Shown piece by piece: positions 11,738 through 32,757 of a DNA stretch of 64,000 bases. Position 1 is the first letter of the stretch, and each line of letters opens with the position of its first letter. The notes under the pieces were generated by a model. The model made no database searches. It worked only from the letters and a program-made list of their open reading frames with translations, and was not told the origin of the DNA. The position numbers and the translations under genes were made by a program. Source of the DNA: Cupriavidus sp. WGlv3 (lineage in GTDB: Bacteria; Pseudomonadota; Gammaproteobacteria; Burkholderiales; Burkholderiaceae); NCBI RefSeq assembly GCF_023952475.1, contig NZ_JALHRX010000001.1:558001-622000 (forward strand). Direction: 5' to 3'.

Positions 11738-12706
11738 ATGGCAAAAACCCCCGCCAGACCCGCCCAACGCCCCGCCCATCTGCCGCCGCTGCAAGCGCTG
11801 CGTGCACTGGAGGCTGCCGCGCGCCACCGCAGTTTCTCCCGCGCGGCCGAGGAGCTGGCCCTGACCCACAGCGCGATTAGCCACCATGTCCGCGCGCTGG
11901 AAACCAGCCTCGGCACCAAGCTGTTCCAGCGCAGCGGCAGCCAGATGGCGCCTACCAGCGTCGGCGCGCGTCTGGCCGAACAGGTGCGCGGCGCGCTCGA
12001 CGACATCGAAAGCGCGCTGCGCGAGGCCGGCAACAGCGCCGCACCGCCGGTGATCCGGCTGCAGGTGAGCGTGATGGCCGACCTCGCCAATGCCTGGCTG
12101 ATCCGCCGCCTGCCCAGCCTGCACGCCCAGGTGCCGTCGCTGGACCTGCACCTGCGGCTGCATGCGGAGATCACGCCGCCGGACCCGTACAGCGTCGATG
12201 TGGGGATCTGGCACCAGCGCATCGACCTGCCCGGCTTCGAGTGCCACAACCTGATCGAAGACCACGTGATCGCGGTGGCCAGCCCGGCGCTGCTGGCGCG
12301 CTACCCGGGCTTTACGCTGGCCGACGTGCCGCGCCTGCCGATGCTGCGCTTTGCCCTGCGCCCCTGGCGCGACTGGCTCGAGGCCGCCGGCCTGCCCGGC
12401 GACGAACCGGAGCGCGGCCCGATCTTCCAGGACGCCGGCCTGATGCTGCAGTCCGCCGTGGCCGGCCTGGGCGTGGCGACCGCGCGCGCACAGCTGGCGC
12501 ACGACTACCTGGCCAGCGGCGAACTGGTGCAGATCGGCCCCACCCGGATCCCGTCGAGCCTGCATTACTGGGTGACCTGGCGCGAAGGCAACCCACGCGA
12601 AAAGGCCATCCAGCAGTTCCATGCCTGGCTGCAGGAACAAGTGCGGCTGGAAGACGCGCCAACGCCCCCGGCCGCCGCCGGCCATGCCGGACAGTTTCAT
12701 CCGTGA
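11738..12706 (+). CDS. LysR-family transcriptional regulator, GcvA-like
   Basis: A 322-residue LTTR. The N-terminal winged helix-turn-helix is clear (LQALRALEAAARHRSFSRAA through HSAISHHVRALE, about residues 15-70). The effector-binding domain follows, with GcvA-type features such as the DVGIW and SAVAGLGVA motifs. It is divergent from the MFS transporter with a 70 bp shared regulatory gap, so it probably controls that gene and itself. The ligand is unknown. Confidence 0.9.
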   Translation: MAKTPARPAQRPAHLPPLQALRALEAAARHRSFSRAAEELALTHSAISHHVRALETSLGTKLFQRSGSQMAPTSVGARLAEQVRGALDDIESALREAGNSAAPPVIRLQVSVMADLANAWLIRRLPSLHAQVPSLDLHLRLHAEITPPDPYSVDVGIWHQRIDLPGFECHNLIEDHVIAVASPALLARYPGFTLADVPRLPMLRFALRPWRDWLEAAGLPGDEPERGPIFQDAGLMLQSAVAGLGVATARAQLAHDYLASGELVQIGPTRIPSSLHYWVTWREGNPREKAIQQFHAWLQEQVRLEDAPTPPAAAGHAGQFHP

Positions 12707-12709
12707 AAT
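12694..12709 (+). promoter_or_regulatory. Dyad GTTTC-N6-GAAAT (site E)
   Basis: GTTTC, six bases, then GAAAT, overlapping the stop codon of the LysR gene. It matches the dyad found upstream of 18192 and of the Flp pilin gene, but it is far from the sigma-54 activator gene it might serve. Confidence 0.3.
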
Positions 12710-12841: not shown

Positions 12842-12857
12842 GTTTCACGGATGCAAC
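12842..12857 (+). promoter_or_regulatory. Dyad GTTTC-N6-GCAAC (site F)
   Basis: GTTTC, six bases, GCAAC: one mismatch from the perfect dyad. On the opposite strand its spacer is ATCCGT, the same spacer as in site E, which suggests the two copies are related. Confidence 0.3.
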
Positions 12858-13376
12858 CATTCGGCTCCGTGTGCCAGCGGCGCTGAAAAAACTGCACGCC
12901 CCATCCAAACAGATGAGAAGCGGCTGAGGCGCCCGGCCGCGATTCATGCAAAGGCTTGTCAACGTGCCCCTTGTCTCCATCGCGCCGCCGCGGCCGGCAG
13001 CGGCGCGGCACTAAAAGGCTGAGGCCGCAGGTGTCGCGAAAAGTCAGCGGAAGATGTATGCACTTCAAATCCTTGTAACGGATATGAAACTGTTTCGACG
13101 GGCAACGACGTGCAGTATCGGAGCCCTCCGTGGCTACCGTTTCCAATTTTTGCTTCCCTCCTTTGGGCGGGCGTTGCGCCTTAAAAATGCCTAGTCATGC
13201 ACCGCGCTCTCCGGTTCGGTGGCCGATGCATCCCATTCCGGGCGAAAGTTTTTTCGCAGCGCAGCATAAATTGACCGGACGACGTAACAAGAGCGGAACG
13301 TTTTGAATCCGGCATGACCGGCAAGGCATCCCTCCAAATATCGCTTTATCTTTCTTTTCAATGACTTAGCCCGCTC

Positions 13377-13392
13377 TGGCACATTCGTCGCA
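13377..13392 (+). promoter_or_regulatory. Possible sigma-54 promoter upstream of the VpsR-like regulator
   Basis: TGGCAC, five bases, TCGCA, giving the strict GG-N10-GC spacing of sigma-54 promoters; the -24 element is perfect and the -12 element has one mismatch. It would imply a leader of about 440 bases before ATG 13843, so it may be a chance match. Confidence 0.3.
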
Positions 13393-13842: not shown

Positions 13843-15219
13843 ATGAGCGCGTACGCCAACCGCCCGCTGCTGTACCTGTCGCAGCACCATGACGCCACGC
13901 TGTGCCGGCTGTTTGCCCAGCGCGGCTGGAAAATCAGCTTCGCGTCGAACCTGCAGGACCTGCAGGCCCTGCCTGCCGGCAACCAGCCGCTGGCCGCGCT
14001 GCTGGACCTGCAAGGCGGTTTCGGCGATGCCGAACTGGAAGCCTTCGAGCCCTGGCTGGCGCAGCGGCATGTCGGCTGGATCGGCATCGTCGCTGGCCAG
14101 CACGCACTGAGCGAGACCGCGCGCCGGCTGCTCGGCCTGTATTTCGTCGACTACCACACCGCCCCGCTCGAGCATCCGCGCCTGGCGGAAGCCCTGGGCC
14201 ACGCACTCGGCATGGCCCGGCTGCGGCCCGGCGCGCAGCACGAGACCCCGCGTACGGCCCGCCCCGATGGCATGATCGGCAGCTGCCCGGCGATGCAGTC
14301 GCTGTTCCGCGGCATCGAAAAGGTGTCGCGCTGGGATACGCCGGTGCTGATCTCCGGCGAGTCCGGCACCGGCAAGGAACTCGCCGCGCAGGCCATCCAC
14401 CGCGCCTCGGCGCGGGCCTCGCGCCCGTTCATCGCGGTCAACTGCGCGGCGATCCCGCCCACGCTGCTGATGTCGGAGCTGTTCGGCTACGAGCGCGGCG
14501 CCTTCACCGGCGCCACCAAGCGCAAGCCCGGCCGCATCGAGATGGCGCAGGGCGGCACGCTGTTCCTCGATGAAATCGGCGACATGCCGATCGAAAGCCA
14601 GACCAGCCTGCTGCGCTTCCTCGAGACCGGACGCATCGAGCGCCTTGGCGGCACCGAATCGATCGAAGTCGATGTGCGCATCATCTCCGCCACCCACGTC
14701 GACCTGGAAGCCGCGATCGCCGCCGAGCGCTTCCGCGGCGACCTGTACCACCGGCTGTGCGTGCTGCGCGTGCGCCAGCCCCCGCTGCGCGAGCGCGGCA
14801 GCGACATCCTGCTGATCGCCGAACACGTGCTGGACACCGTGCGCAAGCAGTCGCCGGCGCGCATCCGCGGCTTCTCGCCGCTGGCGCTGCGCGCGATCCA
14901 GCTGCACACCTGGCCCGGCAATGTGCGCGAGCTGATCAACCGCATCCGCCACGCCGCCGCCATGTGCGAAGACGGCGTGATCCAGCCCGAAGACCTGGAA
15001 CTGGCCGCGCCCGCCGACGATCGCCCGCTCACGCTGGCCGCGATCCGCGAGGCCGCCGAGCAGAACGCCATCGTCGAAGCGCTGCAGCGGCACCATGAAC
15101 GGCTGATCGACGTGGCCGCCGAGCTCGGGATCTCGCGGGTGACGCTGTTCCGGCTGATGCGCGACTACAAGCTGCAGGTGAAGAAGGGAGACCTGGGATT
15201 GATCTGCGTGCAGGGCTAG
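13843..15219 (+). CDS. VpsR-like sigma-54-dependent transcriptional activator
   Basis: A 458-residue enhancer-binding protein. It has an N-terminal VpsR-like receiver-type domain (1-125), a AAA+ sigma-54 interaction domain with Walker A GESGTGK (172-178), GAFTGA loop (219-224) and Walker B LFLDEIGD (about 240-247), and a C-terminal Fis-type helix-turn-helix (about 415-450). The N-domain has an Asp (D55) near the phospho-acceptor position but lacks the acidic pair of true receivers, so control by phosphorylation is doubtful. VpsR relatives activate exopolysaccharide and surface genes. The intact GAFTGA means it should work with RpoN. It sits directly upstream of glycan-type genes. Confidence 0.92.
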   Translation: MSAYANRPLLYLSQHHDATLCRLFAQRGWKISFASNLQDLQALPAGNQPLAALLDLQGGFGDAELEAFEPWLAQRHVGWIGIVAGQHALSETARRLLGLYFVDYHTAPLEHPRLAEALGHALGMARLRPGAQHETPRTARPDGMIGSCPAMQSLFRGIEKVSRWDTPVLISGESGTGKELAAQAIHRASARASRPFIAVNCAAIPPTLLMSELFGYERGAFTGATKRKPGRIEMAQGGTLFLDEIGDMPIESQTSLLRFLETGRIERLGGTESIEVDVRIISATHVDLEAAIAAERFRGDLYHRLCVLRVRQPPLRERGSDILLIAEHVLDTVRKQSPARIRGFSPLALRAIQLHTWPGNVRELINRIRHAAAMCEDGVIQPEDLELAAPADDRPLTLAAIREAAEQNAIVEALQRHHERLIDVAAELGISRVTLFRLMRDYKLQVKKGDLGLICVQG

Positions 15220-16378: not shown

Positions 16379-16400
16379 CAGATCCCGCTGGCATTGAGCT

Positions 16401-17423: not shown

Positions 17424-17685
17424 GATGCGCTCCCCGGACGGCGTGGCGCAGGTGGCCGCCGTCGTGCTCGCACGGTCCTGCGCATGGTCTTGTTATCGGC
17501 GCGGCTGGCGGATGGCATTGCGAGTCGTGCGATGCTGTCCTGCCGTGGCCTGCTGTCGGTTGCGTTGCTGCTGGAAATGCAGCGGCAACGCAGCGACGCA
17601 CTGGCTTCATTCTGGTCAGGCCACCAGCGATATACAAGCACCGCCGAGGTTCCTGGCGAAGCGCGCAAATCCGCCTCGCGCAAGC

Positions 17686-17701
17686 GTTTCCAGATTGAAT
17701 C
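17686..17701 (+). promoter_or_regulatory. Dyad GTTTC-N6-GAATC (site A)
   Basis: GTTTC, six bases, GAATC. The surrounding 18 bases are identical but for one base to site B at 20098, upstream of the Flp pilin gene. It lies about 400 bp upstream of the sigma-54 match at 18089. Confidence 0.5.
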
Positions 17702-17788
17702 ACCACCTGCTTCGGCTGCGCGCCCGCCTGGCGTTTAGCTTCGCGTGGGTCTCGAGCGAAGCCTCCCATTGCCTCGCCATTTCCCCGC

Positions 17789-17804
17789 GTTTCTCCACTG
17801 AAAC
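17789..17804 (+). promoter_or_regulatory. Perfect dyad GTTTC-N6-GAAAC (site G)
   Basis: A perfect inverted repeat, extended by C and G on either side (CGTTTC ... GAAACG). It lies 300 bp upstream of the sigma-54 match at 18089 and shares its architecture with site D upstream of the Tad operon. Confidence 0.55.
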
Positions 17805-17986
17805 GTCGTGCGCCCGCCGACCCGAGCCTGGCGAAGCCCGATGCGCATGGTGAAGCCGCATCTTTTCGTGGCCGGATCCACCAAAGGCACGGTGTACGGT
17901 GCGCTCCGGCTCATCCTTTCGGCGCAGAGCCCGCGCCACCTCACCGTCCCCGTTCACCGGCCGTCGCTCAACAGGAAATTAAGCAC

Positions 17987-18002
17987 GATTCGAAGCGGAA
18001 AC
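17987..18002 (+). promoter_or_regulatory. Dyad GATTC-N6-GAAAC (site C)
   Basis: GATTC, six bases, GAAAC. Its flank GCGGAAACGACGCCCC resembles the flank of site D. It is about 100 bp upstream of the sigma-54 match at 18089, a usual distance for an activator site. Confidence 0.5.
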
Positions 18003-18088
18003 GACGCCCCCGATCCATCGCCGTCAAGCGGGGCCAGCCCCGCATGCGAGGGCTGAAAAACCCCGTAAAACCAAGGCATCTCCGGCAA

Positions 18089-18104
18089 TGGCGCACTCCT
18101 TGCA
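18089..18104 (+). promoter_or_regulatory. Candidate sigma-54 promoter of the 18192 gene
   Basis: TGGCGC, five bases, TTGCA: strict GG-N10-GC spacing with a perfect -12 element and one mismatch in -24. It lies 88 bp upstream of ATG 18192, close to where a promoter is expected, and downstream of three dyads that could bind an enhancer-binding protein. Confidence 0.55.
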
Positions 18105-18191
18105 ACCAGGCCACGCGCCCGCGGGCCGCATTGGGGAAGTGCGCGCCGGATTGACGAGAACGGGCCATCACCAGAGCCACAGCGAGACGCC

Positions 18192-19661
18192 ATGAAAACC
18201 AATACCACGTGGGTCGGGGCAACCGGCACGGACGGCCTGCTCCAGCAGTGCGCCAGGCAGCGCTGGTTCTGGCCGGCGCTGTACGGAATCAGCGTGTTCT
18301 CGATCCTCTCGTTTGCCGGCGCCCGCTTGCTGGTGGACGCAGATACGTTCTGGCACATCGCCGCCGGCAAATGGATCCTGTCCAACCGCGCAGTGCCGGC
18401 CACCGATCCGTTCTCCTTCTCGTTCCACGGCGCCAAATGGGTGCCGCATGAATGGCTCGCCGAAGTCATCCTTGCCGCCTCCCATGCCTGGCTCGGCTGG
18501 GCCGGGCCGGTGCTGGTCACCGCGCTGGCGACCGCCATCACGTTGACCGTGCTGTTGCGGTTCCTGCTGCGCTATATCGAACCCCTGCACGCGTTCAGCG
18601 CCACCCTGCTTACGTTCCTGACGCTGGCGCAGCATCTGGTCGCCCGCCCCCATGTCATGGCCTGGCCGCTGATGGTGATCTGGACCGCGCAGCTGGTGCT
18701 GGCGCGCCAGCAAAACAAGCGGCCGAGCCTGTGGCTGCTGGTCGTCATGCTGGCCTGGGCCAACCTGCATGGCAGTTTCCTGCTCGGCATCGGGCTGGCG
18801 GCAGCGCTGGCCGCCGAGGCGGTCCTCACCGAAAAGCAGCCGGTCCGCAGCGCCAGGGCGTGGGCCCCCTTCCTCGCACTGACGGTCGTGGCGGGCCTGC
18901 TCACGCCGCACGGCGTGGATGGCCTGCTCTTTCCTTTCCACGTCTCTGGCATGAGCTATACGCTCAGCGTGATCGGTGAATGGAAACCGCCCGATTTCCG
19001 CCTGGTCCAGCCGGTCGAGCTGTGGCTCGGCATTGTGCTGTTTGGCGCGCTCTACTTCGGCTTCCGGCTGCCGGCGATGCGGATCGTGATGTGCTTCGGG
19101 CTGGTCCACCTTACCCTGACCGCGGCCCGCTATGCCGAATTGCTAGGACTGCTGGCCCCGCTGTTGCTGATGCCAAGCGTCGGGCCCCAGCTGCGCGCGG
19201 CGATCCGTCCGGAGATCAAGCTGCAGCTGTCGCCACCGCTGCTTCGGATCCTGACCTCGTTGTGCCTGGCACTGTTCATGACCAGCATCCTCCTGCTTGC
19301 CAAAGGCATCCCGCACGACCATCGGCGCATACAGCCCCGCGACGCCGTCAATGCGGCCATCGCGGCAGGCGGCGGCGGGCCGGTCTTCAACAGCTACAAC
19401 TTCGGGGGCTACCTGATCTTCTCCGGCATTGCGCCGCTTATCGACGGCCGCGCCGACCTCTACGGCGACGACTTCGTGCGCCGGTATATGAAAGCCCATT
19501 CCGGCGACGCCAAAGCACTGCAGGACATGTTCGAGGAATACAGGATCCGCTGGGCGGTTCTTGAACCCGGGAGTCCTGCATTGAAGTGGATCGATGCCTT
19601 GCCGGGCTGGCGAAAAGTCCACGAGGATGACATTGCCGTCTCCTATGTCCGCGAACGATAG
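18192..19661 (+). CDS. Polytopic membrane protein, GT-C-like (putative GtrC-type glycosyltransferase)
   Basis: A 489-residue inner-membrane protein with about ten transmembrane helices and a C-terminal soluble tail. The first periplasmic loop has an Asp-rich motif, LLVDADTFWHIAAGKWIL (D51), followed by VPATDPFSF. This recurs in poorly characterised GT-C-fold proteins that use polyprenyl-phosphate sugars. The tail contains NSYNFGGYLIF and LIDGRADLYGDDFVRRY, also shared within that group. Placed opposite GtrB and near GtrA, it could be the enzyme that transfers the sugar to its final acceptor. The acceptor is unknown and the enzyme assignment is inference. Confidence 0.7.
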   Translation: MKTNTTWVGATGTDGLLQQCARQRWFWPALYGISVFSILSFAGARLLVDADTFWHIAAGKWILSNRAVPATDPFSFSFHGAKWVPHEWLAEVILAASHAWLGWAGPVLVTALATAITLTVLLRFLLRYIEPLHAFSATLLTFLTLAQHLVARPHVMAWPLMVIWTAQLVLARQQNKRPSLWLLVVMLAWANLHGSFLLGIGLAAALAAEAVLTEKQPVRSARAWAPFLALTVVAGLLTPHGVDGLLFPFHVSGMSYTLSVIGEWKPPDFRLVQPVELWLGIVLFGALYFGFRLPAMRIVMCFGLVHLTLTAARYAELLGLLAPLLLMPSVGPQLRAAIRPEIKLQLSPPLLRILTSLCLALFMTSILLLAKGIPHDHRRIQPRDAVNAAIAAGGGGPVFNSYNFGGYLIFSGIAPLIDGRADLYGDDFVRRYMKAHSGDAKALQDMFEEYRIRWAVLEPGSPALKWIDALPGWRKVHEDDIAVSYVRER

Positions 19662-19677
19662 GGCCGCCAGCACGCTC

Positions 19678-19709
19678 GTGCGCGTATCCGGCTAGCCGGA
19701 TACGCGCAC
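19678..19709 (+). terminator. Perfect 32-bp palindrome downstream of the GT-C-like gene
   Basis: Two 14-base arms (left arm GTGCGCGTATCCGG) around a central CTAG, perfectly self-complementary, 16 bp after the stop of the 18192 gene. It would form a strong hairpin in RNA. There is no following T-run, so it may be a processing or stability hairpin, or a protein site, rather than an intrinsic terminator. Confidence 0.5.
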
Positions 19710-20097
19710 CGCCCGCCGCGTACCGCGCGCCATGCCTGGCCGCGCACGAAGGCATCTCTGCCAGCGACACGCGCACGCATAACAAGCCCCGTGCCATCTG
19801 CACGGTACGTGCGCCGCCATCTGCATCCTGCAGTCCCGACCGCCCTGCGGCGCACCAGCTGTGGCCGCCCGCGCGCCTCTGCGTGTTCCCCGTTTCCCAT
19901 GCTCGCGGACAACCATCGCGAAGCCTGGGTAAAACCCCGCTCCATCGGCTTCTCGCACATCTCTCCAAGGCGCGAAGGCTGCATGAACGCGCGTCTTGCC
20001 GTGCTGCTTTTTCCCCCGCGTTCCCCCCTGCGTGTGATGGCGGCCGCGTGCGTGCAGGCTCGGCATTGCAGCGCAGAAGCGCCGTACCCCGCCCCAT

Positions 20098-20113
20098 GTT
20101 TCCAGACTGAATC
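20098..20113 (+). promoter_or_regulatory. Dyad GTTTC-N6-GAATC (site B)
   Basis: GTTTC, six bases, GAATC. An 18-base stretch here matches site A (17686) at 17 positions. It is about 470 bp upstream of the sigma-54 match at 20571. Confidence 0.5.
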
Positions 20114-20212
20114 ACGCTGTCGCGCAGGGCTGCAAGCCTTGCCACACAAGGGTTTCGAGGACATACCCGGGAACTCCACCAGGTCTCTCGCACCGCGGCT
20201 CCCATTCGCAAC

Positions 20213-20228
20213 GTTTCGATCCGGAAAC
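20213..20228 (+). promoter_or_regulatory. Perfect dyad GTTTC-N6-GAAAC (site D)
   Basis: A perfect inverted repeat with flanking C and G, as in site G (17789). It lies about 360 bp upstream of the sigma-54 match at 20571. Confidence 0.55.
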
Positions 20229-20457
20229 GCGGCCCCGTCAAGAGCCGCCCTCATCCGTCAGTCTGGCAGGCACCGGCGCATGGGGCCAGGCCAGGCGGGA
20301 AGACTACGGCTTGTGATGCATGCCGCCCCCCGGCGCCATCGCCGCCTCATGCTTTTGGATGAAGTTGCCGAGCCGCTCGCATTAGTCCGGCGCACGTGGA
20401 CACGTTGCGCGATCTAGGGCGTTCGTAGCGCCCTCGGGAATGGCTTGCCAGCGCTGC

Positions 20458-20473
20458 GTTTCCACCCAGCAAC
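20458..20473 (+). promoter_or_regulatory. Dyad GTTTC-N6-GCAAC (site H)
   Basis: One mismatch from the perfect dyad, of the same variant type as site F. It is about 110 bp upstream of the sigma-54 match at 20571, mirroring the position of site C before 18089. Confidence 0.4.
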
Positions 20474-20570
20474 GAAGCCCCGCCGAAATGCCGCCGGCAG
20501 GCCTGCCAGCCCCGCGACGACTGCGGGCCGCTACCCGCAAACCCTTGTGGCACAACGGATTGCGCCGGGC

Positions 20571-20586
20571 TGGCCCGCCGCTTGCC
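20571..20586 (+). promoter_or_regulatory. Candidate sigma-54 promoter upstream of the Tad operon
   Basis: TGGCCC, five bases, TTGCC: strict GG-N10-GC spacing with one mismatch in -24. It would leave a leader of about 430 bases before the first Flp pilin gene, which is long. Support comes mainly from the dyads at matching distances upstream. Confidence 0.4.
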
Positions 20587-21011
20587 TATGCCAGGCATGC
20601 GGTACCGCAGTCCTGGTTACCGCAGTGCCGGCGCAACGTTCGCCGGCATCAAACCAGAACGATACGGGGAGCTTCACCATGCCAGTCGTGCGCCAACCTG
20701 CGATGTCACACCGGAATACCGGCCACGCTGCTGCCGCCAGGGGCGCTGGCAGCGCGCCATTCCGTTGCAGGGCTCGCTCGGGCCACGTACAGCACGCCGC
20801 GCGTTGCATGCATGCGTCGGCGCTACGCCGGCTGCAATCACGCAACCCGCGCATCGAGCACGGCGGTCCCGGCCGGTGGCCGTTCCATGCCTGCGCAATC
20901 TGCGCCCCGCCCTGCTGCCGGGTTTCCAGGCGCTGATATCCGGTGCCATCCAGCGCCCTATCGCAGTTCCGTAGTCCTGCAGTGCTTGTTCCCAAACCAA
21001 AGGAGTCTGTC

Positions 21012-21200
21012 ATGCAAAACCTGACCACCATGCTGAAGCAATTCTTCCGTGACGAAGACGGCGTGACCGCCATCGAATACGGCCTGATTGCCGCGCTCAT
21101 CGCCGTTGTCATCATCGTTTCGGTTCGCCTGATCGGCACGAACCTGAACATCATCTTCGACTTCATCGGCGACACGCTGACCAACGCCCTGCCCGCCTGA
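21012..21200 (+). CDS. flp1: Flp-type pilin, first copy
   Basis: A 62-residue type IVb (Flp) prepilin, the main subunit of a Tad pilus. The prepilin peptidase site is G17 | VTAIEY, with the invariant Glu at +5 (E22) and Tyr at +6, followed by a hydrophobic helix (LIAALIAVVIIVSV). The mature pilin would be 45 residues. An AGGAG 8 bp upstream supports ATG 21012. It is the first gene of a 14-gene tad operon. Confidence 0.95.
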   Translation: MQNLTTMLKQFFRDEDGVTAIEYGLIAALIAVVIIVSVRLIGTNLNIIFDFIGDTLTNALPA

Positions 21201-21293
21201 TAGCTGGCGGGCCCGCATGGCTGTCCGGTTCCGGGCGGCCATGCGGCAGACACTTCCAAAGCGAACCAACAACACCGACAACGGAGACGCCAA

Positions 21294-21467
21294 ATGTCGA
21301 AGCTTCTCGCCAGTTCAGCCGGCTTTCTGCGCGACGACCGCGGTGTCACGTCCATCGAATACGCATTGCTTGGCAGCCTGATCGCCATGGCAATCGTCGG
21401 CTCCGTATCCGCGCTCGGCGAAACCGTGCAAGGCATGTACGAGCAGATTGCCGCCAGGATGCCCTGA
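21294..21467 (+). CDS. flp2: Flp-type pilin, second copy
   Basis: A 57-residue Flp prepilin. The processing site is G17 | VTSIEY, with Glu +5 and Tyr +6 conserved, followed by the helix ALLGSLIAMAIVGSV. Mature length would be about 40 residues. A GGAG sits 9 bp upstream of ATG. It differs strongly from Flp1 after the leader and helix, so it is an old duplication and could be a minor or alternative pilin. Confidence 0.92.
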   Translation: MSKLLASSAGFLRDDRGVTSIEYALLGSLIAMAIVGSVSALGETVQGMYEQIAARMP

Positions 21468-21524
21468 GTAGCCGGATCCGATCCGTCCATACCGAACACA
21501 ACCAAGCTGCCAGCACCCATCACC

Positions 21525-22058
21525 ATGCAAGCCGCCACCGCCCTCGCGCCCTTCATCGGCCCCGCCACGATCGGCATCGTGCTCGCCGCCGCGGCGATCG
21601 ACCTGAACCGGCGGCGCATTCCCAACTGGCTGACCTTCGGCGCGTGGATCGCCGCGCTGCCCGTGATGGCAGCCATGCACGGCCTGGGTACCGGCGCGCT
21701 GGCGTGGCTGTCGGGCTGGCTGGTGGGCCTGGTGCTGTTCCTCCCGTTCTACCTGCTGCGCGGCATGGCCGCCGGCGACGTCAAGCTGATGGCTGCGGTA
21801 GGTGCCTGGCTGGGCGCCTGCATGGCGCTGAAGATCGCGCTCGCCACCTTCGTGATTGGCGGACTGTGGGCACTGGTCCAGGTCTTTGCGACCGGACATG
21901 GGCGCACCACCCTCGCCCGCGTGGGACACATGCTGAAAGCCGCCGTGGCGCCTGGCTCGCAGTCCGCGCCACCACAGGCCGGGGAGTCCGCCGGATCCAT
22001 GCCCTACGGCGTAGCGATTGCCGCGGGAACGCTGACCATGCTCTTTGCAGGCACATGA
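21525..22058 (+). CDS. cpaA: Prepilin peptidase of the Tad system (TadV/CpaA)
   Basis: A 177-residue integral membrane aspartic peptidase that cleaves Flp prepilins. The two catalytic aspartates are D26 (AAAIDLNRRRIPN) and D85 (AAGDVKLMAAVG), each in the standard family context. There are about five transmembrane helices and no methylase domain, as expected for the short TadV type. The ribosome binding site is weak, and translation may depend on upstream coupling. Confidence 0.93.
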   Translation: MQAATALAPFIGPATIGIVLAAAAIDLNRRRIPNWLTFGAWIAALPVMAAMHGLGTGALAWLSGWLVGLVLFLPFYLLRGMAAGDVKLMAAVGAWLGACMALKIALATFVIGGLWALVQVFATGHGRTTLARVGHMLKAAVAPGSQSAPPQAGESAGSMPYGVAIAAGTLTMLFAGT

Positions 22059-22135
22059 CGCAAGCGAGGCAGCGCAGCGCGGGCAGCGGCAGCCTTCAGC
22101 AAGAAGACGAACTGACCAGGGAACGGGGGACGGCA

Positions 22136-23554
22136 ATGAACGAGCATCACGACACAGGTCACGCACCACGGCTGCTCGAGCCCGTGGCGACCGGCAGGAA
22201 TCTCCATGCCGAGCCTGCCACGCCGCCGTTGCCGCCGTGGCACGTGCTGCCGCGCACGATTGCCGATACCGGGCTGGAGATCGCGCAGTTGCTCGGGCTG
22301 CTGATGAAGGCCGCCTACCAGCACCGCACCGTCACGCTGGCGGTGCTGACCGACACGCTCAAGCTGCCCGCACTGGTGGTCAATGAAATCGCGGCGGTCG
22401 CGGTGCGCGAGCGCCTGCTGGAAATCGCGCACCGCGGCGCCAGCGACCTCGATGTGCGCTTCCGCCTGACCGATGCCGGTTATGTCCGTGCAGGCGAAGC
22501 CGCGGCGCGCTGCAGCTATGTCGGCACGGCGCCGGTGACGCTGGACGCATACATCGACGCGGTCAAGCACCACTCGGTCAGCCACGCCAGCGTGACCAAG
22601 GCGGATGTCACCGCGGCCTTCCACGACCTGGTGATCCCGGTCCAGCTGCTGGATTCGATCGGCATGGCGCTGAACACCTGCCGCGCGCTGATGATCTACG
22701 GGCCGGCCGGCAGCGGCAAGACCTACCTGGCACAACGGCTGGGTACGCTGTTGCCCGGCGCGGTGCCGGTGCCGCACGCCATCACCGTGGGTGGCGAGAT
22801 CATCCAGGTGTTCGACCCGCTGGTCCATGTCCCGTGCAACGACGGCGAAGCCTCGCTGGCGCACCGCTCGCTGGACCGCCGCTGGACGCTGTGCCACCGC
22901 CCGGTGGTGCTGTCGGGCGGCGAGCTGACGCTGTCCACGCTGGACCTGCGCTATGACCGCACCTCTGGCTTCTACCAGGCCCCGCCGCACATGAAGGCCA
23001 ACAACGGCATCTACATCATCGATGACCTGGGCCGGCAACTGGTGGGGGTGGCCGACCTGCTCAACCGATGGATCGTGCCGCTGGACCGGTCCATCGACAT
23101 GTTCACGCTGCACACCGGCGTGCGCTTCTCGGTGCCGTTCGATGTCTGGCCGGTGTTCTCGACCAATCTCGAGCCGGGGGCGCTGGGCGACGATGCCTTC
23201 CTGCGCCGGCTGGGCAGCAAGCTCTATGTGGGCCCCTTGTCGGTGGACGACTACCGCGAGGTGTATCACCGCACCGCCGCCGACTTCGGGCTGACCAGCA
23301 CCGACGCGGTCTTCGATTTCCTGGTCGACAGCCTGCACTACGCCAGCGATACGCCGCTGCTGGCGTGCATTCCGCGCGACCTGCTGCGTCTGGTGGATTC
23401 CGGCGTGCGCTACCACGGCAAGGCCACGCACGTGACCGAGGCCGGCCTGCTGTCGGCGTGGCAGAACTACTACGGACTGCGCACCTCGGCCGAACCGACG
23501 ACGCATCCGGGCGGCGCCCACCGATGGTCGGACGATCACCGCGCCGCCGGCTGA
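22136..23554 (+). CDS. AAA-type ATPase within the Tad operon
   Basis: A 472-residue soluble protein. An N-terminal winged-helix-like segment (about 50-125, MKAAYQHRTVTLAVLTDTLK through LTDAGYVRAGEAA) precedes a AAA+ core with Walker A GPAGSGKT (189-196) and Walker B IYIIDD (292-297). A C-terminal helical lid follows. It is distinct from TadA and TadZ and is not part of the minimal Tad set. GGGGGA 5 bp before ATG 22136 supports the start. Its place between the prepilin peptidase and cpaB implies a role in assembly or in regulating pilus genes. I recall similar ORFs in some Ralstonia/Burkholderia tad loci, but its function is unknown to me. Confidence 0.85.
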   Translation: MNEHHDTGHAPRLLEPVATGRNLHAEPATPPLPPWHVLPRTIADTGLEIAQLLGLLMKAAYQHRTVTLAVLTDTLKLPALVVNEIAAVAVRERLLEIAHRGASDLDVRFRLTDAGYVRAGEAAARCSYVGTAPVTLDAYIDAVKHHSVSHASVTKADVTAAFHDLVIPVQLLDSIGMALNTCRALMIYGPAGSGKTYLAQRLGTLLPGAVPVPHAITVGGEIIQVFDPLVHVPCNDGEASLAHRSLDRRWTLCHRPVVLSGGELTLSTLDLRYDRTSGFYQAPPHMKANNGIYIIDDLGRQLVGVADLLNRWIVPLDRSIDMFTLHTGVRFSVPFDVWPVFSTNLEPGALGDDAFLRRLGSKLYVGPLSVDDYREVYHRTAADFGLTSTDAVFDFLVDSLHYASDTPLLACIPRDLLRLVDSGVRYHGKATHVTEAGLLSAWQNYYGLRTSAEPTTHPGGAHRWSDDHRAAG

Positions 23555-23598
23555 ACTGCACTACCGAAGATTCGGGACAACTGTAGGGGAGAGTCATC

Positions 23599-24438
23599 AT
23601 GAAAAACACACGTGCAATCCTGATGCTGCTGGTCGCCCTCGTCGCCGGCGCGGCGGCGGTGGTGTCGGCGTCGCGATGGCTGGTCCAGCAGTCGTCCGGC
23701 TCCGTCAAGCAAGTGGTGGTCGCGGCCAACGACCTCAACCTGGGCCAGCCGCTCAACGGCGGCCAGCTGCGCATGGTCAGCTGGCCCGCGGGCAGCGTGC
23801 CGCCCGGCGCCTTCACCGACCTGAAGGCACTCGAAGGGCGCGTGGTCCGCACCAGCCTGCAGCGCGGCGAACCCGTTCTCGACGCCAAGCTGGCGCCGAT
23901 CGGCACCAAGGGCGGGCTGTCCGCGGTGATCAACGACGGCAAGCGCGCCATCACGGTTCGCGTCAACGATGTAGTCGGCGTGGCCGGCTTCGCACTGCCT
24001 GGCAACTACGTCGACGTCATCGTCAACACCAACGAAGAAGCGAAGAGCAACCAGAACAGCAGCATCTCGAAGATCGTGCTCGAGAAGATCCTGGTGCTGG
24101 CGGTCGCGCAGCAGGTCAGCCGTGACGAAACCCAACCCAAGGTGGTCAACGCCGTGACGCTCGAAGTCTCGCCTGACCAGGCCGAGAAGCTCGACGTGGC
24201 GCGCAGCGTGGGCACGCTCTCGCTGGTGCTGCGCAACCAGATGGACGTGGCCGACATCAGCACCGGTGGCGCCACCAAGGGCACGCTGCTGGGCAAGGCA
24301 CCGGAGGCACCGCCCAAGGTCGTGACCAAGACCGAGACCCGCACCGTGGTCAAGACGCGCACCGTGGCGAAAGCCCCCGCGCGCGGCAACTGCATCGGCG
24401 TGCTGGCAGGCATGCAGGGCGGCGTCGAGTGCTTCTGA
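23599..24438 (+). CDS. cpaB: Pilus assembly protein CpaB/RcpC
   Basis: A 279-residue periplasmic protein with one N-terminal membrane anchor or signal (about 5-27), an SAF domain (about 37-100) and the CpaB/RcpC domain (about 110-245). The SAF region reads VVVAANDLNLGQPLNGGQLR. The C-terminus is a basic Thr/Lys stretch ending in a Cys-containing tail (NCIGVLAGMQGGVECF). A strong GGGGAG precedes ATG. It probably supports the secretin encoded next. Confidence 0.93.
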   Translation: MKNTRAILMLLVALVAGAAAVVSASRWLVQQSSGSVKQVVVAANDLNLGQPLNGGQLRMVSWPAGSVPPGAFTDLKALEGRVVRTSLQRGEPVLDAKLAPIGTKGGLSAVINDGKRAITVRVNDVVGVAGFALPGNYVDVIVNTNEEAKSNQNSSISKIVLEKILVLAVAQQVSRDETQPKVVNAVTLEVSPDQAEKLDVARSVGTLSLVLRNQMDVADISTGGATKGTLLGKAPEAPPKVVTKTETRTVVKTRTVAKAPARGNCIGVLAGMQGGVECF

Positions 24439-24504
24439 GCGCCGGCACCACGGCATCCAACGAATCCTGAGCTGCAACACAGCCTCTCCGGGGGGAGATT
24501 CAAA

Positions 24505-26388
24505 ATGAACCAGACACGATCCGACGTCGCAGGCGGCACCCGCATCCTGGTGCTGGCCGCCTTCCTCTGCACGCCTCTGGCCGCCGCGGCGCAGGCCGCC
24601 GTCGAGGCAGGCAACGTTACCCGGGCCACCGCACCGGCAACCGCCAAGGCGCCGCAGGGCCCGATGCAGATGACCATCAGCATGACGCCCGGCGCCGCCG
24701 CGCCGGCCGCGCAGGCCCCGGCCGCGACTTCGGCGGAGGCGCGCGGCCCCAACTGCACCGGCGCCATCCGCAGTGAATCCAGCGTGATTGTGGCGGTCGG
24801 CAAGTCCCAGCTGATCACGCTGCAGGAGCCGGTACGCAACCGTACCCTGGGCAACCCGGGCGTGGTGCAGGCCACCATGGTGTCGCCGCAGACGCTCTAT
24901 GTGCTGGGCCGTACGGTGGGAACCACCAACATGATCGTGCAGGGCCGCAGCGGCAGCTGCAGCATCATCAACGTGGTGGTCAACGCCGATGCCGGCGGGC
25001 TGCAGACCTCGCTCGGCCAGTTGCTGCCCGGCGAGCCCGGCATCCGCGTGACCACCGCCGCGGACAACCTGGTGCTGACCGGCAGTGTCACCAACGCGCA
25101 GGCGGCGCAGCAGGCGATGGAAATTGCCCAGGCTTACGCCAACGCTGCGCACAATGGCGAGGGCAACGGCAACGGCGGCAACAAGAAGGGCAACGTGCTG
25201 AACATGTTGTCGGTCGATACCCCGCAGCAGGTGATGCTGGAAGTGAAGGTGGCCGAGGTGTCCAAGACGCTGCTGAACCAGCTCGGTTCCGCAGTGAACC
25301 TGCAGGGCGGCTTCGGCTCCTGGACCGGTGGCCTGGTGACGTCGCTGCTGACTGGCGCGTCGGCAGCCTTCTTCGGCAGCAAGGCCAACAACCTGCCGTT
25401 CGAGTTCGCCATCGATGCACAGAAGAACGACAGCCTGGTCAAAATCCTGGCCGAGCCGAACCTGGTCACCATCAGCGGGCAGGAAGCCAGCTTCCTGGCG
25501 GGCGGCAAGATCTATATCCCGGTGGCGCAGGCCAACGTGCTGAACGGGGCCGGTACGGTCACGCTTCAGGAAGAAGAGTTCGGCGTGGGCCTGAAGTTCA
25601 CGCCCACGGTGTTGGCCAATGGCCGCATCCACCTGAAGGTCGCGCCGGAAGTATCCGAGCTGTCACCGACCGGCGCCACCATCCGTGGCGGCACCCTGAC
25701 CGGCCAGACCGTGCTGCCGGTGATCACCACCCGCCGCGCCTCCACCACGGTGCAGATGCGCGACGGCGAGAGCTTCGCCATCGGCGGCCTGCTGACCGAC
25801 AGCGCACGCGGCTCGCTCAAGGCGCTGCCGGGTGCCGGCGAAGTGCCGGTGCTGGGCACGCTGTTCCGCAGCACGCAATACCAGCAGGACCTGTCCGAAC
25901 TGGTGTTCATCATCACGCCGCGCCTGGTCAAGCCGATGCAGACCAGCAACTACCCGCTGCCGACCGACAGCTTCTCCACGCCCAACCCGCTGTCGCTGTA
26001 CTTCATGGGCAATATGGAAGGCGACGGCAAGCGTCCGACCCAACCCGCCCCGGCACCGTCGCAGCCCGCCGCGCCGGCCGCAGTCCCCGCCGCACCGCCG
26101 GCAGCACCGCGCAGCGAAGGCGCGCCGGTTACCGCGGTCTCGGCCATGCCGACCGGCAGGCCGCTGGACGAGCCGGCGCCGGCCGCGCCGCAAGCCTTGG
26201 CCGCAGCCAGCCCGCGGCCGGCCCTGCCAGCGCCGGCGGCCCCTGCGCGCAGCAGCGCGGTGGCGCCTGCACCCGCCGAAGACACCGCCGCGCGCATTGC
26301 CCGCATCGAGGCGACCGCCGCCCGGCTGGCGCAAGCCAGGGCCGCGGCCGCGGCCACCACCGGCCGCACGTCATCGGGCGGCAACTGA
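24505..26388 (+). CDS. rcpA: Tad pilus secretin CpaC/RcpA
   Basis: A 627-residue outer-membrane secretin, the exit channel of the Tad pilus. It has a signal peptide, an N0-like domain (about 90-155), a BON/N1-like domain and a C-terminal secretin domain (about 230-490). The secretin domain includes the AEPNLVTISGQEASFLAGG and VPVLGTLFRSTQYQQDLSEL blocks. After the usual secretin end (FIITPRLVKPM) a tail of about 140 residues follows that is rich in Pro and Ala; many relatives lack it. GGGGGGAGA precedes ATG 24505. Confidence 0.94.
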   Translation: MNQTRSDVAGGTRILVLAAFLCTPLAAAAQAAVEAGNVTRATAPATAKAPQGPMQMTISMTPGAAAPAAQAPAATSAEARGPNCTGAIRSESSVIVAVGKSQLITLQEPVRNRTLGNPGVVQATMVSPQTLYVLGRTVGTTNMIVQGRSGSCSIINVVVNADAGGLQTSLGQLLPGEPGIRVTTAADNLVLTGSVTNAQAAQQAMEIAQAYANAAHNGEGNGNGGNKKGNVLNMLSVDTPQQVMLEVKVAEVSKTLLNQLGSAVNLQGGFGSWTGGLVTSLLTGASAAFFGSKANNLPFEFAIDAQKNDSLVKILAEPNLVTISGQEASFLAGGKIYIPVAQANVLNGAGTVTLQEEEFGVGLKFTPTVLANGRIHLKVAPEVSELSPTGATIRGGTLTGQTVLPVITTRRASTTVQMRDGESFAIGGLLTDSARGSLKALPGAGEVPVLGTLFRSTQYQQDLSELVFIITPRLVKPMQTSNYPLPTDSFSTPNPLSLYFMGNMEGDGKRPTQPAPAPSQPAAPAAVPAAPPAAPRSEGAPVTAVSAMPTGRPLDEPAPAAPQALAAASPRPALPAPAAPARSSAVAPAPAEDTAARIARIEATAARLAQARAAAAATTGRTSSGGN

Positions 26389-26422
26389 CCCGCCGCGCCA
26401 ACCGCAGAACCGGAGAACGACC

Positions 26423-26758
26423 ATGAACAAGACTCTGAAGCTTTCGCGCGGCGCCACCGTGGTGGTGCTGGGCGGCCTGGCCTGCCTCGGCCTGTCGGCG
26501 TGCATGACCTCCACGCCGGTATGGGACGGCCAGCGCGGCGTGGCACTGGCCACCGTCACGCAAATGCAGATCATCAATCCCGACGCGCCGGCCGGCCTGC
26601 CTACCGTCACCGGCACCGACGGCAAGACCGCCGTGGCGGCGATGAAGAACTTCGACCGTTCGCTGTCGAAGGGCCAGCAAGGCGGGGCGCCTGCCATGAC
26701 CATCGACTTCGGCGCCGGCGGCTATGGCGGCATTGGCATGGGCGGCGGCGGCCGCTGA
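26423..26758 (+). CDS. Small Tad-locus lipoprotein
   Basis: A 111-residue lipoprotein with lipobox LGLSAC (lipidated C27). The remainder has no recognised domain and ends in a Gly-rich tail (GAGGYGGIGMGGGGR). CGGAGAA precedes ATG. It follows the secretin gene by 34 bp, so it could act as a secretin pilotin or an RcpB/CpaD-like partner; that role is inferred from position only. Confidence 0.8.
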   Translation: MNKTLKLSRGATVVVLGGLACLGLSACMTSTPVWDGQRGVALATVTQMQIINPDAPAGLPTVTGTDGKTAVAAMKNFDRSLSKGQQGGAPAMTIDFGAGGYGGIGMGGGGR

Positions 26759-26783
26759 GCACCGGAACCAGGGGGAGGCGATC

Positions 26784-28040
26784 ATGTCTACATCGCGCTT
26801 CGCACGATCCACGCTGACGCGGCGCAAGCGCCAGCGTGGCGCAGTGGCCATCATCGTAGGGCTGTCGCTGGCCGTGCTGATCGGCTTTGTCGGGCTCGCA
26901 CTCGACCTGGGCAAGCTCTATGTGACCAAGAGCGAGCTGCAGAACAGCGTCGATGCCTGCGCGCTGGCGGCCGCACGCGATGTCACGGGGGCCACGCCGC
27001 TGCTCGTGTCCGAGGCCGCCGGCCTCACCACGGGCACGAGCAACGCCGCCCTGTTCCAGGGCAAGGCCGTGGAAATGTTCGAGAACCTCAACGTCACCTA
27101 CAGCGATACGCCTGACAACAACTTTTACCCCAAGAGCGAGGTTCCCTACTCGCTCGACAAGATCAAGTACGTGAAATGCACGGCCGAGCGCACCGGTATC
27201 GCCCACTGGTTCATCCAGGTACTCAATGCGCTGCCAGGGATGAATATCCAGCCCAGCACGGTCAATGCCATGGCCGTCGCCACCACCACCAGCGCACAAA
27301 CCGCCTGCGCGATCCCGGTCTATATCTGCACGCCGCAAACCGCGAATCCGGTGCGGACCGCCTACAACCGTGGCGACTGGATCAAGTCCAAGGACGAGAA
27401 GGATCCCTACGGCCCCGGTAGCTTCGGCTGGGCTGACCTTACTCCGCCCGGCGGCGGCGCCTCCGAACTGGCGGAACTGCTGGCCGGCTCCGGGCAGTGC
27501 GACCTGTCGGTAGTAGGCTCCAAGGTCGGCCAGCCAGGCAGCATTTCGTCGCTGATACCCGCGTGGAACACCCGCTTCGGCATCTATACCGGCTCCTACA
27601 AGGGACCGGAGCACGGCACACCGGACTTCACGGGCTATTCCTACAGCGTTACAACATGGAATTCGCCCAATGGCGGCAACGCCTACCCGGACTTCATCCA
27701 GAAGCGCGGTGCCAATGAGCCGTACCAGACCGACGCGAACAGCGGACTGTCGACCCATGGCACGGCTTCGACCAAGGCGGTCCATCAGGCTGGCGCAGAC
27801 CGCAGGCTGGTACAGGTGCCCGTGGTGAACTGCAACGACCTGGCCTCGACCAAGCAAGCCACGGTGGACTCCTGGGCCTGCATGCTGATGGTGCAGCCGA
27901 TGCAGGATCCCAGCGTAAAGGACGTGACCTACATCGAGTACCTTGGCGATTCGAAGGATCCCACCAGCCCGTGCGCGACCCAGGGCGTGCCCGGATCCAG
28001 CACGGGTCTTGGTCCGCGCGTGCCGGTGCTGGTGCAATAG
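26784..28040 (+). CDS. tadG: TadG-like pilus protein
   Basis: A 418-residue protein with the TadG N-terminus: short basic leader, GAVAIIVGLSLAVLIGFVGLALDLGKLY, and a long extracytoplasmic region. The helix begins with the G-A-V pattern of TadE/TadG proteins and is followed by SELQNSVDACALAAARD, the standard TadG block. Several Cys pairs in the distal part suggest disulfides. GGGGGAGG before ATG 26784 fixes the start. It is followed at 10 bp by a TadE-like gene. Confidence 0.9.
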   Translation: MSTSRFARSTLTRRKRQRGAVAIIVGLSLAVLIGFVGLALDLGKLYVTKSELQNSVDACALAAARDVTGATPLLVSEAAGLTTGTSNAALFQGKAVEMFENLNVTYSDTPDNNFYPKSEVPYSLDKIKYVKCTAERTGIAHWFIQVLNALPGMNIQPSTVNAMAVATTTSAQTACAIPVYICTPQTANPVRTAYNRGDWIKSKDEKDPYGPGSFGWADLTPPGGGASELAELLAGSGQCDLSVVGSKVGQPGSISSLIPAWNTRFGIYTGSYKGPEHGTPDFTGYSYSVTTWNSPNGGNAYPDFIQKRGANEPYQTDANSGLSTHGTASTKAVHQAGADRRLVQVPVVNCNDLASTKQATVDSWACMLMVQPMQDPSVKDVTYIEYLGDSKDPTSPCATQGVPGSSTGLGPRVPVLVQ

Positions 28041-28049
28041 GAGCCGATC

Positions 28050-28559
28050 ATGAAGCGATGCAGGCAACGCAGGTGCAACCGTCGCGGCGCGGTCGCCGTG
28101 GAGTTCGCGCTGGTACTGGTGCCCTTGCTGATGCTGGTGACCGGGGTGGCGGAGTTCGGGCGGGCCATCTACCAGTACAACGCCCTGGCCAAGGCCACCC
28201 GCGATGCGGCGCGCTTCCTGTCGCAGTACGCGCCCAGCGAACCGAATTATCCGGTGGACCAGGCCAAATGCATCGCCGTCTATGGCAAGACCACCTGCGG
28301 CGGCACGGCGCTGGTGAAAGGCCTCAGCACGTCGATGGTGGTGGTCTGCGACCGCGTCGACTCGACCGGCTGCGCCGGCAAGCAGTTTGCCAACGTCGCC
28401 ATCTACGAAGGCGGCGGCAGTTCCGGCACGCCGGCGGGCACCATCAACCTGGTGGCAGTGAAGATCTCGGGCTTTACCTATTCGCCCATGCAGAGCTATC
28501 TCGAAGTGGGGGCCCTGGCGTTCTCCGATATCACGACGACAATGAGGCAGGTGCTATGA
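28050..28559 (+). CDS. tadE: TadE-like pseudopilin
   Basis: A 169-residue TadE-family minor pilin. The N-terminal segment RRGAVAVEFALVLVPLLMLV carries the pseudopilin processing-like motif (G, then VAVEF with Glu +4/+5). Conserved EFGRAIYQYNALAKATRDAAR follows. The distal region has Cys residues. It overlaps the next gene by 4 bp. Confidence 0.92.
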   Translation: MKRCRQRRCNRRGAVAVEFALVLVPLLMLVTGVAEFGRAIYQYNALAKATRDAARFLSQYAPSEPNYPVDQAKCIAVYGKTTCGGTALVKGLSTSMVVVCDRVDSTGCAGKQFANVAIYEGGGSSGTPAGTINLVAVKISGFTYSPMQSYLEVGALAFSDITTTMRQVL

Positions 28560-29014
28560 CTCCGACCCGCGCTCCGCGCCTGCGTTCGCGCCAGACCGGC
28601 GCGGCCGCCATCGAGTTCGCCCTGGTCGCCAGCATCTTCTTCATGCTGCTGATCGGCATTGCCGAGTTTTCGCGCGTGCTGTTTTACTGGAACACCGCCG
28701 GCGAAGCCACCCGGCTGGGAGCCCGCATCGCCGTGGTGTGCGACGTCACCGACACCGCCATCAAGGACCGGATGACGCATCTGATGCCCTTGCTGAAGGC
28801 CAGCAATATCCAGGTCGCGTTCGAGCCCAGTGGTTGCGACGCCGACGACGACTCAGCGCGCAATTCCTGCCGCTCCGTCACCGTCAGCGTGGCCGACGTT
28901 ACGGTCAAGACCTTTATTCCGGTGGTGCCGATCACGGTGTCGCTGCCCCCGTTCTCGACCACGCTGCCGCGGGAGAGCCTCGACTCTTCCACCGGCGGCA
29001 AGATCTGCAACTAG
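28556..29014 (+). CDS. tadF: TadE/TadF-like pseudopilin
   Basis: A 152-residue second TadE-family protein (QTGAAAIEFALVASIFFMLL, then EFSRVLFYWNTAGEATRLGAR). It starts at ATG 28556 inside the stop region of the previous gene (ATGA overlap). Sequence likeness puts it in TadE rather than a distinctive TadF family; the tadF label comes from position. It probably works with TadE and TadG at the pilus base or tip. Confidence 0.88.
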   Translation: MTPTRAPRLRSRQTGAAAIEFALVASIFFMLLIGIAEFSRVLFYWNTAGEATRLGARIAVVCDVTDTAIKDRMTHLMPLLKASNIQVAFEPSGCDADDDSARNSCRSVTVSVADVTVKTFIPVVPITVSLPPFSTTLPRESLDSSTGGKICN

Positions 29015-29037
29015 CGCGCATGAACCAGGAGCACACC

Positions 29038-30231: not shown

Positions 30232-30288
30232 TTCATCGATTGCAGCCGACCGGCCACGGTCAACCGCACCGCCAACGAGGAGTCCATC

Positions 30289-31659: not shown

Positions 31660-31704
31660 CCGGCCAGGGCACATACCAATACGATCCATCCGGGGGAGCT
31701 ACAC

Positions 31705-32682: not shown

Positions 32683-32757
32683 GGCGTCGGCGGCGGTTGC
32701 CTCGGGGCAGTGCCAGAAGAAGCAGGGCTTGGACAGCCATACTGACGGGAGTCCATC

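What the first reader, a model, noticed from the sequence alone, without database searches (positions are those of the whole stretch)
17686..20586. A repeated dyad GTTTC-N6-GAAAC upstream of the glycan and Tad pilus genes
Seen in sequence: perfect copies at 17789 and 20213, near-perfect copies at 17686, 17987, 20098 and 20458, plus weaker ones at 12694 and 12842. All have the same six-base spacer length. Sites at 17686 and 20098 share 17 of 18 bases. In both main regions the copies lie about 470-400, 360-300 and 110-100 bp upstream of a GG-N10-GC sigma-54-like element. Known: enhancer-binding proteins use upstream dyads. Inference: these are operators of the VpsR-like activator (13843-15219), tying a glycosylation locus and the Tad pilus into one regulon.
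Basis: partly seen in the sequence, partly recalled or inferred. Interest (0 to 1): 0.85.

Follow-up and report, generated by a model that had tools for sequence, protein, structure and literature searches.

The report
VpsR-type switch sites before Tad pili
In a likely Cupriavidus bacterium, rows of regularly spaced DNA palindromes, conserved across related species, sit in front of predicted sigma-54 start sites for Tad pili, a likely sugar-transferring enzyme and a VpsR-type activator, and are likely the docking sites through which VpsR-type activators would switch these surface genes on together.

Summary
All eight named dyads are present; GTTTC-N6-GAAAC (up to 1 mismatch) has 98 places in the 6.75-Mb genome, 8 of them here (about 0.9 expected in 64 kb). 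In the window, 36 genus relatives and 9 loci of a second genus, dyad classes and their distances to TGGC-N7-TTGC recur while most spacer positions vary. Spacings change in steps of about 11 bp (pooled p about 0.0005; each series alone 0.01-0.06). VpsR-family ownership has independent support: a published V. cholerae VpsR site is TTTC-N6-GAGA, and dyad+sigma-54 composites elsewhere lie beside other VpsR-family genes (7 of 12). Best reading: VpsR-family enhancer arrays; the local VpsR likely acts here, untested.

The parts
12694..12709 (+). dyad GTTTC-N6-GAAAT, -683 from the vpsR sigma-54 element (overlaps the 3' end of the LysR gene)
12842..12857 (+). dyad GTTTC-N6-GCAAC, -535 from the vpsR sigma-54 element
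13075..13090 (+). dyad GTAAC-N6-GAAAC (2 mismatches), -302; one mismatch in some relatives
13284..13299 (+). proximal dyad GTAAC-N6-GGAAC (3 mismatches), -93; position kept in many relatives
13377..13391 (+). predicted sigma-54 element TGGCACATTCGTCGC before the vpsR-like gene
   Evidence: pattern found in 36 of 41 genus vpsR+ loci (not in L151-L155) and 8 of 9 second-genus loci
13843..15219 (+). VpsR-like sigma-54 activator (PF20161 VpsR, Sigma54_activat, AAA_lid_14, HTH_8; GAFTGA)
17686..17701 (+). distal dyad GTTTC-N6-GAATC of the 18192 promoter, -403
17789..17804 (+). middle perfect dyad, -300
17987..18002 (+). proximal dyad GATTC-N6-GAAAC, -102
18089..18103 (+). predicted sigma-54 element TGGCGCACTCCTTGC
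18192..19661 (+). 489-aa, hydrophobic, likely membrane glycosyltransferase; a source names an 89%-identical relative 'Glycosyltransferase RgtA/B/C/D-like'
   Evidence: no Pfam or NCBIfam match
20098..20113 (+). distal dyad GTTTC-N6-GAATC of the flp-tad promoter, -473
20213..20228 (+). middle perfect dyad, -358
20458..20473 (+). proximal dyad GTTTC-N6-GCAAC, -113
20543..20557 (+). second palindrome CCTTGTGGCACAACG, 28 bp before the sigma-54 element; owner unknown
20571..20585 (+). predicted sigma-54 element TGGCCCGCCGCTTGC
21012..21202 (+). flp, Flp/Fap pilin (PF04964)
21525..33732 (+). tad genes: prepilin peptidase, RcpC/CpaB, secretin, TadE/G-like, TadZ-like ATPase, TadA-like ATPase, two T2SSF proteins
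   Evidence: the Tad names of the ATPases are mine, from the Pfam domains

Best explanation
The GTTTC-N6-GAAAC dyads are likely the operators of VpsR-family sigma-54 activators, arranged as likely enhancer arrays before predicted sigma-54 promoters: three dyads each before the likely glycosyltransferase gene (18192) and the flp-tad genes (21012), and four, two of them weak, before the vpsR-like gene itself (13843). Inferred mechanism: activator dimers bind the dyads, presumably best at the perfect middle site, assemble on the enhancer and loop to sigma-54 polymerase; the proximal dyad sits at about -90 to -93, -102 or -113, close to one helical turn apart, so that it would stay on the same face. 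The signal is probably c-di-GMP, as reported for VpsR and BerB, but this is untested here. The local VpsR likely drives all three units, including its own gene; the VpsR paralogue on another contig could share the sites. Shown: sites, distances, conservation, domain make-up and gene proximity. Inferred: binding, activation, signal, shared regulon.
For: 1) Conservation: arrays in 53 promoters (44 from 37 genus loci, window included; 9 from a second genus). Of 30 half-site columns 27 hold 1.4 bits or more, of 18 spacer columns 13 hold under 0.8; rows were chosen for having dyads, so half-site values are partly built in, while class-specific departures (distal GAATC/GAAGC, middle GAAAC, proximal GCAAC or GATTC) and distances are not. 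2) Spacing states differ by about 11 bp; pooled best period 11.2, R 0.87, p about 0.0005 under a uniform null. 3) Composite sigma-54+proximal dyad: 55 places in 42 of 60 genus genomes, 0 for the backwards pattern; 44 of 55 within 10 kb of a local-type vpsR. 4) Other VpsR-family genes: a GCGA-type composite search gave 12 places in 60 genomes (1 backwards-control place), 7 within 10 kb of the VpsR paralogue, 6 of these in genomes whose paralogue region I had not taken when I set the pattern; beside the paralogue a TGGCA[CT]-N5-TCGC element has a dyad (up to 2 mismatches) at -101, -103 or -91 in all 8 loci where it was found, of 11 examined; in the order scan 4 of 6 same-family places lie under 1 kb from a VpsR-family gene, though 2 of the 4 are in G069, from which the -90 design was read. 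5) V. cholerae VpsR site at craA TTTCACAATTGAGA = TTTC-N6-GAGA (PMC6890996, passage). 6) Recognition helices SRVTLFRLM (local) and SRVTLYRLM (paralogue). 7) BerB precedent: RpoN-dependent, c-di-GMP-binding, target promoter TGGCACGTAAATCGC (PMC5552954, passages).
Against: No binding or expression data. The local activator is not required for dyads to exist: all 14 readable tad loci without it keep dyads of up to 2 mismatches. Array, vpsR and tad follow one RcpC lineage in both genera (8 vpsR+ and 20 vpsR- rows), so their co-occurrence is close to one event. G024 has no VpsR-domain protein yet keeps the sigma-54 element and 2-mismatch dyads; G021, which has a paralogue, is similar. Five of 41 vpsR+ loci lack the vpsR sigma-54 pattern, and the window's vpsR proximal dyad has 3 mismatches and lies at -93, not the -90 used in the phasing test. 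Single spacing series reach only p 0.013, 0.042, 0.051 and 0.061. Four of 19 vpsR-less genus genomes also have a TTGC composite, one of them, G005, before flp. The berA promoter has no N6 dyad at -90. A V. fischeri study found no V. cholerae-like VpsR sites upstream of the genes in its data set (PMC10804989, passage). Outside the family the -90 composite gave 7 places against 2 controls. 11 of 55 and 4 of 12 composite places lie near no VpsR gene, though G020's and G005's are before flp.
Confidence: 0.77

Rival explanations
1. The dyads are operators of the VpsR paralogue encoded elsewhere (G000:C83:25107-26417), and the local VpsR uses other sites or only modulates.
For: A close relative of the paralogue was listed for 58 of 60 genomes, vpsR-less ones whose flp promoter keeps dyads among them; its own neighbourhood carries dyads with a sigma-54 element.
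Against: The three-dyad array ending at about -102 or -113 from a TTGC-type element was found at 46 flp-side promoters with local vpsR and not in the 14 readable genus or 5 second-genus tad loci without it (L239 has a different TTGC composite with a dyad at -94). Paralogue-side proximal dyads are GTTGC-type in 4 of 8 loci and GTTTC-type in 1.
Confidence: 0.15
2. The dyads belong to a different, unlinked regulator that also acts on these surface loci, and nearness to VpsR-family genes is incidental.
For: No binding data; G024 has 2-mismatch dyads and no VpsR-domain protein.
Against: 7 of 12 and 4 of 6 composite places beside VpsR-family genes; match to the geometry of the one published V. cholerae VpsR site I could read.
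Confidence: 0.06
3. Chance palindromes in intergenic DNA.
For: The backwards pattern also has 52 places genome-wide.
Against: Kept classes and spacings across 53 promoters; 0 control composites in 60 genomes.
Confidence: 0.02

Closest known systems
VpsR binding sites of Vibrio cholerae
   Same: TTTC-N6-GAGA at craA (PMC6890996, passage); regulator for which the VpsR domain is named
   Different: V. cholerae VpsR acts without RpoN (stated in PMC5552954, passage); here GAFTGA is present and sigma-54 elements follow
BerB / berA of Burkholderia cenocepacia
   Same: RpoN-dependent, c-di-GMP-binding enhancer-binding protein; TGGCACG-N4-TCGC target promoter; biofilm surface target
   Different: No N6 dyad at -90 of the berA promoter in the two related loci read; target is an exopolysaccharide regulator, not Tad pili; BerB's own VpsR domain not tested
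SypG-sigma-54 control of the syp operons of Vibrio fischeri
   Same: four operons, each with a sigma-54 promoter and activator sites (PMC10804989, passage)
   Different: a response regulator; site sequence not compared here
TyrR boxes (recalled, not tested)
   Same: bEBP-type HTH with N6-spaced dyads
   Different: half-sites and targets differ

Membership tests
VpsR-family bacterial enhancer-binding protein (13843-15219) | N-terminal VpsR domain PF20161 above the curated cut-off | tested here: met
   55.1 bits, cut-off 23.7
VpsR-family bacterial enhancer-binding protein (13843-15219) | AAA+ sigma-54 interaction domain with GAFTGA | tested here: met
   PF00158 231 bits; GAFTGA in the sequence
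VpsR-family bacterial enhancer-binding protein (13843-15219) | c-di-GMP binding | not testable with these tools
   needs a binding assay
VpsR operator (VpsR box) | dyad of TTTC/GA[GA]A halves with 6-bp spacer | tested here: met
   TTTC-N6-GAAA in 17789 and 20213 against the published craA site; only one published site could be read
VpsR operator (VpsR box) | bound by a VpsR-family protein | not testable with these tools
   no binding data
sigma-54 promoter | GG-N10-GC with TGGC..T[TC]GC context at a conserved position | tested here: met
   transcription starts not mapped
upstream enhancer array | sites at fixed, helically phased distances | tested here: met
   pooled; single series are borderline and states are not fully independent
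IHF site (20543-20557 element) | WATCAANNNNTTR clearly above shuffles | tested here: inconclusive
   36 of 53 promoters score 6 of 9, shuffled 30 of 53

The most novel reading that the evidence does not exclude
A LysR gene followed by a VpsR-dyad/sigma-54 promoter is a fixed docking chassis behind which whole Tad-pilus cassettes are exchanged: in one lineage the old promoter drives flp directly, in the other a vpsR-glycan block has captured it and carries a fresh three-dyad array for its own tad operon, wiring the incoming pilus and its sugars into the resident VpsR-family network.
Probability: 0.33. Interest if true: 0.7.

Novelty: new member of a known kind. Interest (0 to 1): 0.57.

Why it matters
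VpsR-family activators are known from polysaccharide and adhesin control. My literature searches (open-licence papers only, listings and a few passages) showed no VpsR-family operator at Tad genes in this family. A defined dyad with fixed distances makes the regulon predictable in at least two genera, links pilus, likely sugar transfer and the regulator's own gene, and gives a phasing rule that can be tested directly.

Tried and rejected
IHF identity of the 20543 palindrome: scores near shuffled. Rfam search of 12500-21500 at E up to 1: one sub-threshold snoRNA match, no use. Genome-contig scan with the activator returned mostly distant activators through generic motifs (80 of 591 kept), with the dyad pattern in 3 of 80 loci, L018, L059 and L084; not used further. 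Order-level -90 composite: 7 places outside the family against 2 controls. berA as a proven example: its promoter lacks an N6 dyad at -90, so it is precedent only. The co-occurrence of array and vpsR in the second genus (9 of 9 with, 0 of 5 tad loci without; Fisher p 0.0005, counts typed in) was demoted after the RcpC tree showed block inheritance. Rows dropped: L138, L158, L159 and L165 of 41 genus loci from the spacing statistics; for three of these genomes (G029, G050, G020) the composite was found before flp in other loci, G048 (L165) lacks it. L234 (contig end) from the vpsR-less set; L172; 13 of 44 LysR rows under 100 residues from the LysR tree. The distal class holds 56 rows for 53 promoters, so a few chance 2-mismatch sites are in it. 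Papers not held: PMC4352665 and PMC9071405. Of the papers cited by identifier only passages were seen; all others only as search listings.
Full report
Observation. In the whole 6.75-Mb genome the palindrome GTTTC-N6-GAAAC with up to one mismatch has 98 places, against 52 for the backwards pattern; 8 of the 98 are in this window and 6 within 2.8 kb. A single dyad is therefore weak evidence, the clustered set is not. The distances to the two sigma-54 elements are -403/-300/-102 (18089) and -473/-358/-113 (20571).

Conservation. A search with the activator in 60 genomes (the window's own and 59 of the genus) gave a close orthologue (69% identity or more; partial in G048 and G053) in 40 of the 59. 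I took all 40 loci. In 36 of them and the window, dyads stand in one order upstream of a TGGC-N7-TTGC element on the flp side (in L137 and L142 flp lies past the end of the stretch), and in all 7 loci with the 18192 gene, window included, a second array stands before it. Of the four other loci, three genomes have the composite before flp in other stretches, and G048 does not. Nine loci of a second genus (g24, unnamed; possibly Ralstonia) show the same array. Over these 53 promoters 27 of 30 half-site columns hold 1.4 bits or more and 13 of 18 spacer columns under 0.8. The rows were picked because they hold dyads, so the half-site values are partly built in. What is not built in is that departures from perfection are mostly kept by class: distal GAATC (GAAGC in 8 of 9 g24 loci), middle perfect in nearly all, proximal GCAAC or, in the shorter design, GATTC on the other half. 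This looks like a weak-strong-weak series kept by selection; affinity itself is inferred.

Spacing. Middle-to-proximal distances cluster at 190, 200, 220, 234, 244; distal-to-middle at 92, 101, 115, 159, 171; proximal-to-promoter at 102 and 113, with 90 in the vpsR-less flp promoters and second-genus vpsR promoters. Taken as states they fit a period of 11.2 bp (R 0.87, p about 0.0005 under a uniform null; single series p 0.013 to 0.061). States in related genomes are not fully independent.

A third array. The vpsR-like gene has its own predicted sigma-54 element, TGGCACATTCGTCGC at 13377, with dyads at -93, -302, -535 and -683 (13284 with 3 mismatches, 13075 with 2, 12842, 12694). The element's pattern was found in 36 of 41 vpsR+ loci of the genus (absent in L151-L155) and 8 of 9 in the second genus.

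Who binds. The protein at 13843 has the VpsR domain, the sigma-54 ATPase domain and an HTH_8, with GAFTGA. A second VpsR-domain protein is encoded at G000:C83 with nearly the same recognition helix. Three lines tie the dyad to the family. First, the published V. cholerae VpsR site at craA is TTTCACAATTGAGA, that is TTTC-N6-GAGA (PMC6890996, passage). Second, beside the paralogue a TGGCA[CT]-N5-TCGC element is preceded by a dyad (up to 2 mismatches) at -101, -103 or -91 in 8 of 11 loci examined; in the other three no such element was found. A genome-wide GCGA-type composite search gave 12 places and 1 control place, 7 of the 12 within 10 kb of the paralogue, 6 of these in genomes whose paralogue region I had not taken. 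Third, in an order-wide scan of 399 genomes with the -90 design, 6 of 13 places were in this family, and 4 of those 6 lie under 1 kb from a VpsR-family gene; 2 of the 4 are in G069, where I had read the design, so only 2 are fresh. The 7 places outside the family stand against 2 controls.

Against an exclusive link with the local gene. Nineteen of the 59 relatives lack the orthologue; 15 of them have a tad RcpC at 59-65% identity. In the 14 readable loci (the contig of L234 is too short) flp is preceded by dyads, in 13 with at most one mismatch, and by a TGGCA-type sigma-54 element; the same LysR gene was found in 10 of the 15 stretches. The dyads therefore outlive the local activator. In the second genus 5 of 7 genomes without vpsR have tad of the other type, each with a perfect dyad at -493 to -496 and 2 of 5 with a 2-mismatch dyad at -90. 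An RcpC tree of 28 rows puts vpsR+ (8) and vpsR- (20) tad genes on two sides of a supported branch, each side with both genera, so array, vpsR and tad moved as a block. A LysR tree of 31 rows, many of them fragments, mixes the two states (7 changes; 67 of 500 shuffles as low; few supported branches). That hints at exchange of tad cassettes behind a resident promoter. It is the novel case and is not shown.

Second element. A palindrome, CCTTGTGGCACAACG in the window (20543), has its best match exactly 28 bp before the sigma-54 element in 45 of 53 promoters; at that offset 10 of 53 match without mismatch and 34 with two or fewer, and it is poor at the 18192 promoters. Its exact form occurs once in the window's genome, but over 60 genomes it is found in 21 and the backwards control is about as common, so only the fixed position speaks for it. 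An IHF site is not supported.

Glycan label. The 18192 protein has no Pfam or NCBIfam match; a source calls an 89%-identical Cupriavidus taiwanensis protein 'Glycosyltransferase RgtA/B/C/D-like', which is also why I call the organism Cupriavidus-like. A GT2 glycosyltransferase, a GtrA-type protein and a methyltransferase lie nearby. A pilin-sugar role is inference. The tad genes were confirmed by Pfam domains.

Literature. BerB of B. cenocepacia is an RpoN-dependent, c-di-GMP-binding activator acting at TGGCACGTAAATCGC before berA (PMC5552954, passages). Two related loci carry that promoter, but no N6 dyad at -90. A V. fischeri paper says V. cholerae-type VpsR sites were not found upstream of genes in its data set (PMC10804989, passage). 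None of my listings showed a VpsR-family operator at Tad genes in this family; subscription papers are mostly not held.

Verdict. A real, conserved regulatory design, most likely VpsR-family enhancer arrays. New as a member, known as a kind. After re-checking, the odds of the novel case were lowered slightly (0.35 to 0.33) because the LysR tree is not better than shuffled labels.

Noticed in passing
window 20543-20557: Palindrome CCTTGTGGCACAACG whose best match lies a fixed 28 bp before the sigma-54 element in 45 of 53 promoters; 34 of 53 with two mismatches or fewer; owner unknown.
   Followed up: partly
window 13392-13842: A leader of about 450 bp between the vpsR sigma-54 element and the ATG; no useful Rfam match.
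   Followed up: partly
L166 (G000:C83), about 6480-7535 in the orientation of the paralogue: Beside the VpsR paralogue, a sigma-54-like element with dyads at -101 and -226 points to a small, possibly exported protein of unknown function (139 aa ORF).
   Followed up: partly
L003 position 1501 (G000:C24:60974-60989): A single perfect GTTTC-N6-GAAAC dyad upstream of what looks like pilM of the type IV pilus (gene name by eye, not tested).
   Followed up: no
G000:C13:23478-24074: A second, distant RcpC/CpaB-like gene (32% identity), suggesting another tad cluster in the same genome.
   Followed up: no
L228-L242 and L126-L165: Two tad lineages are found in the slot after the same LysR gene, as if cassettes were exchanged behind one promoter.
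   Followed up: partly
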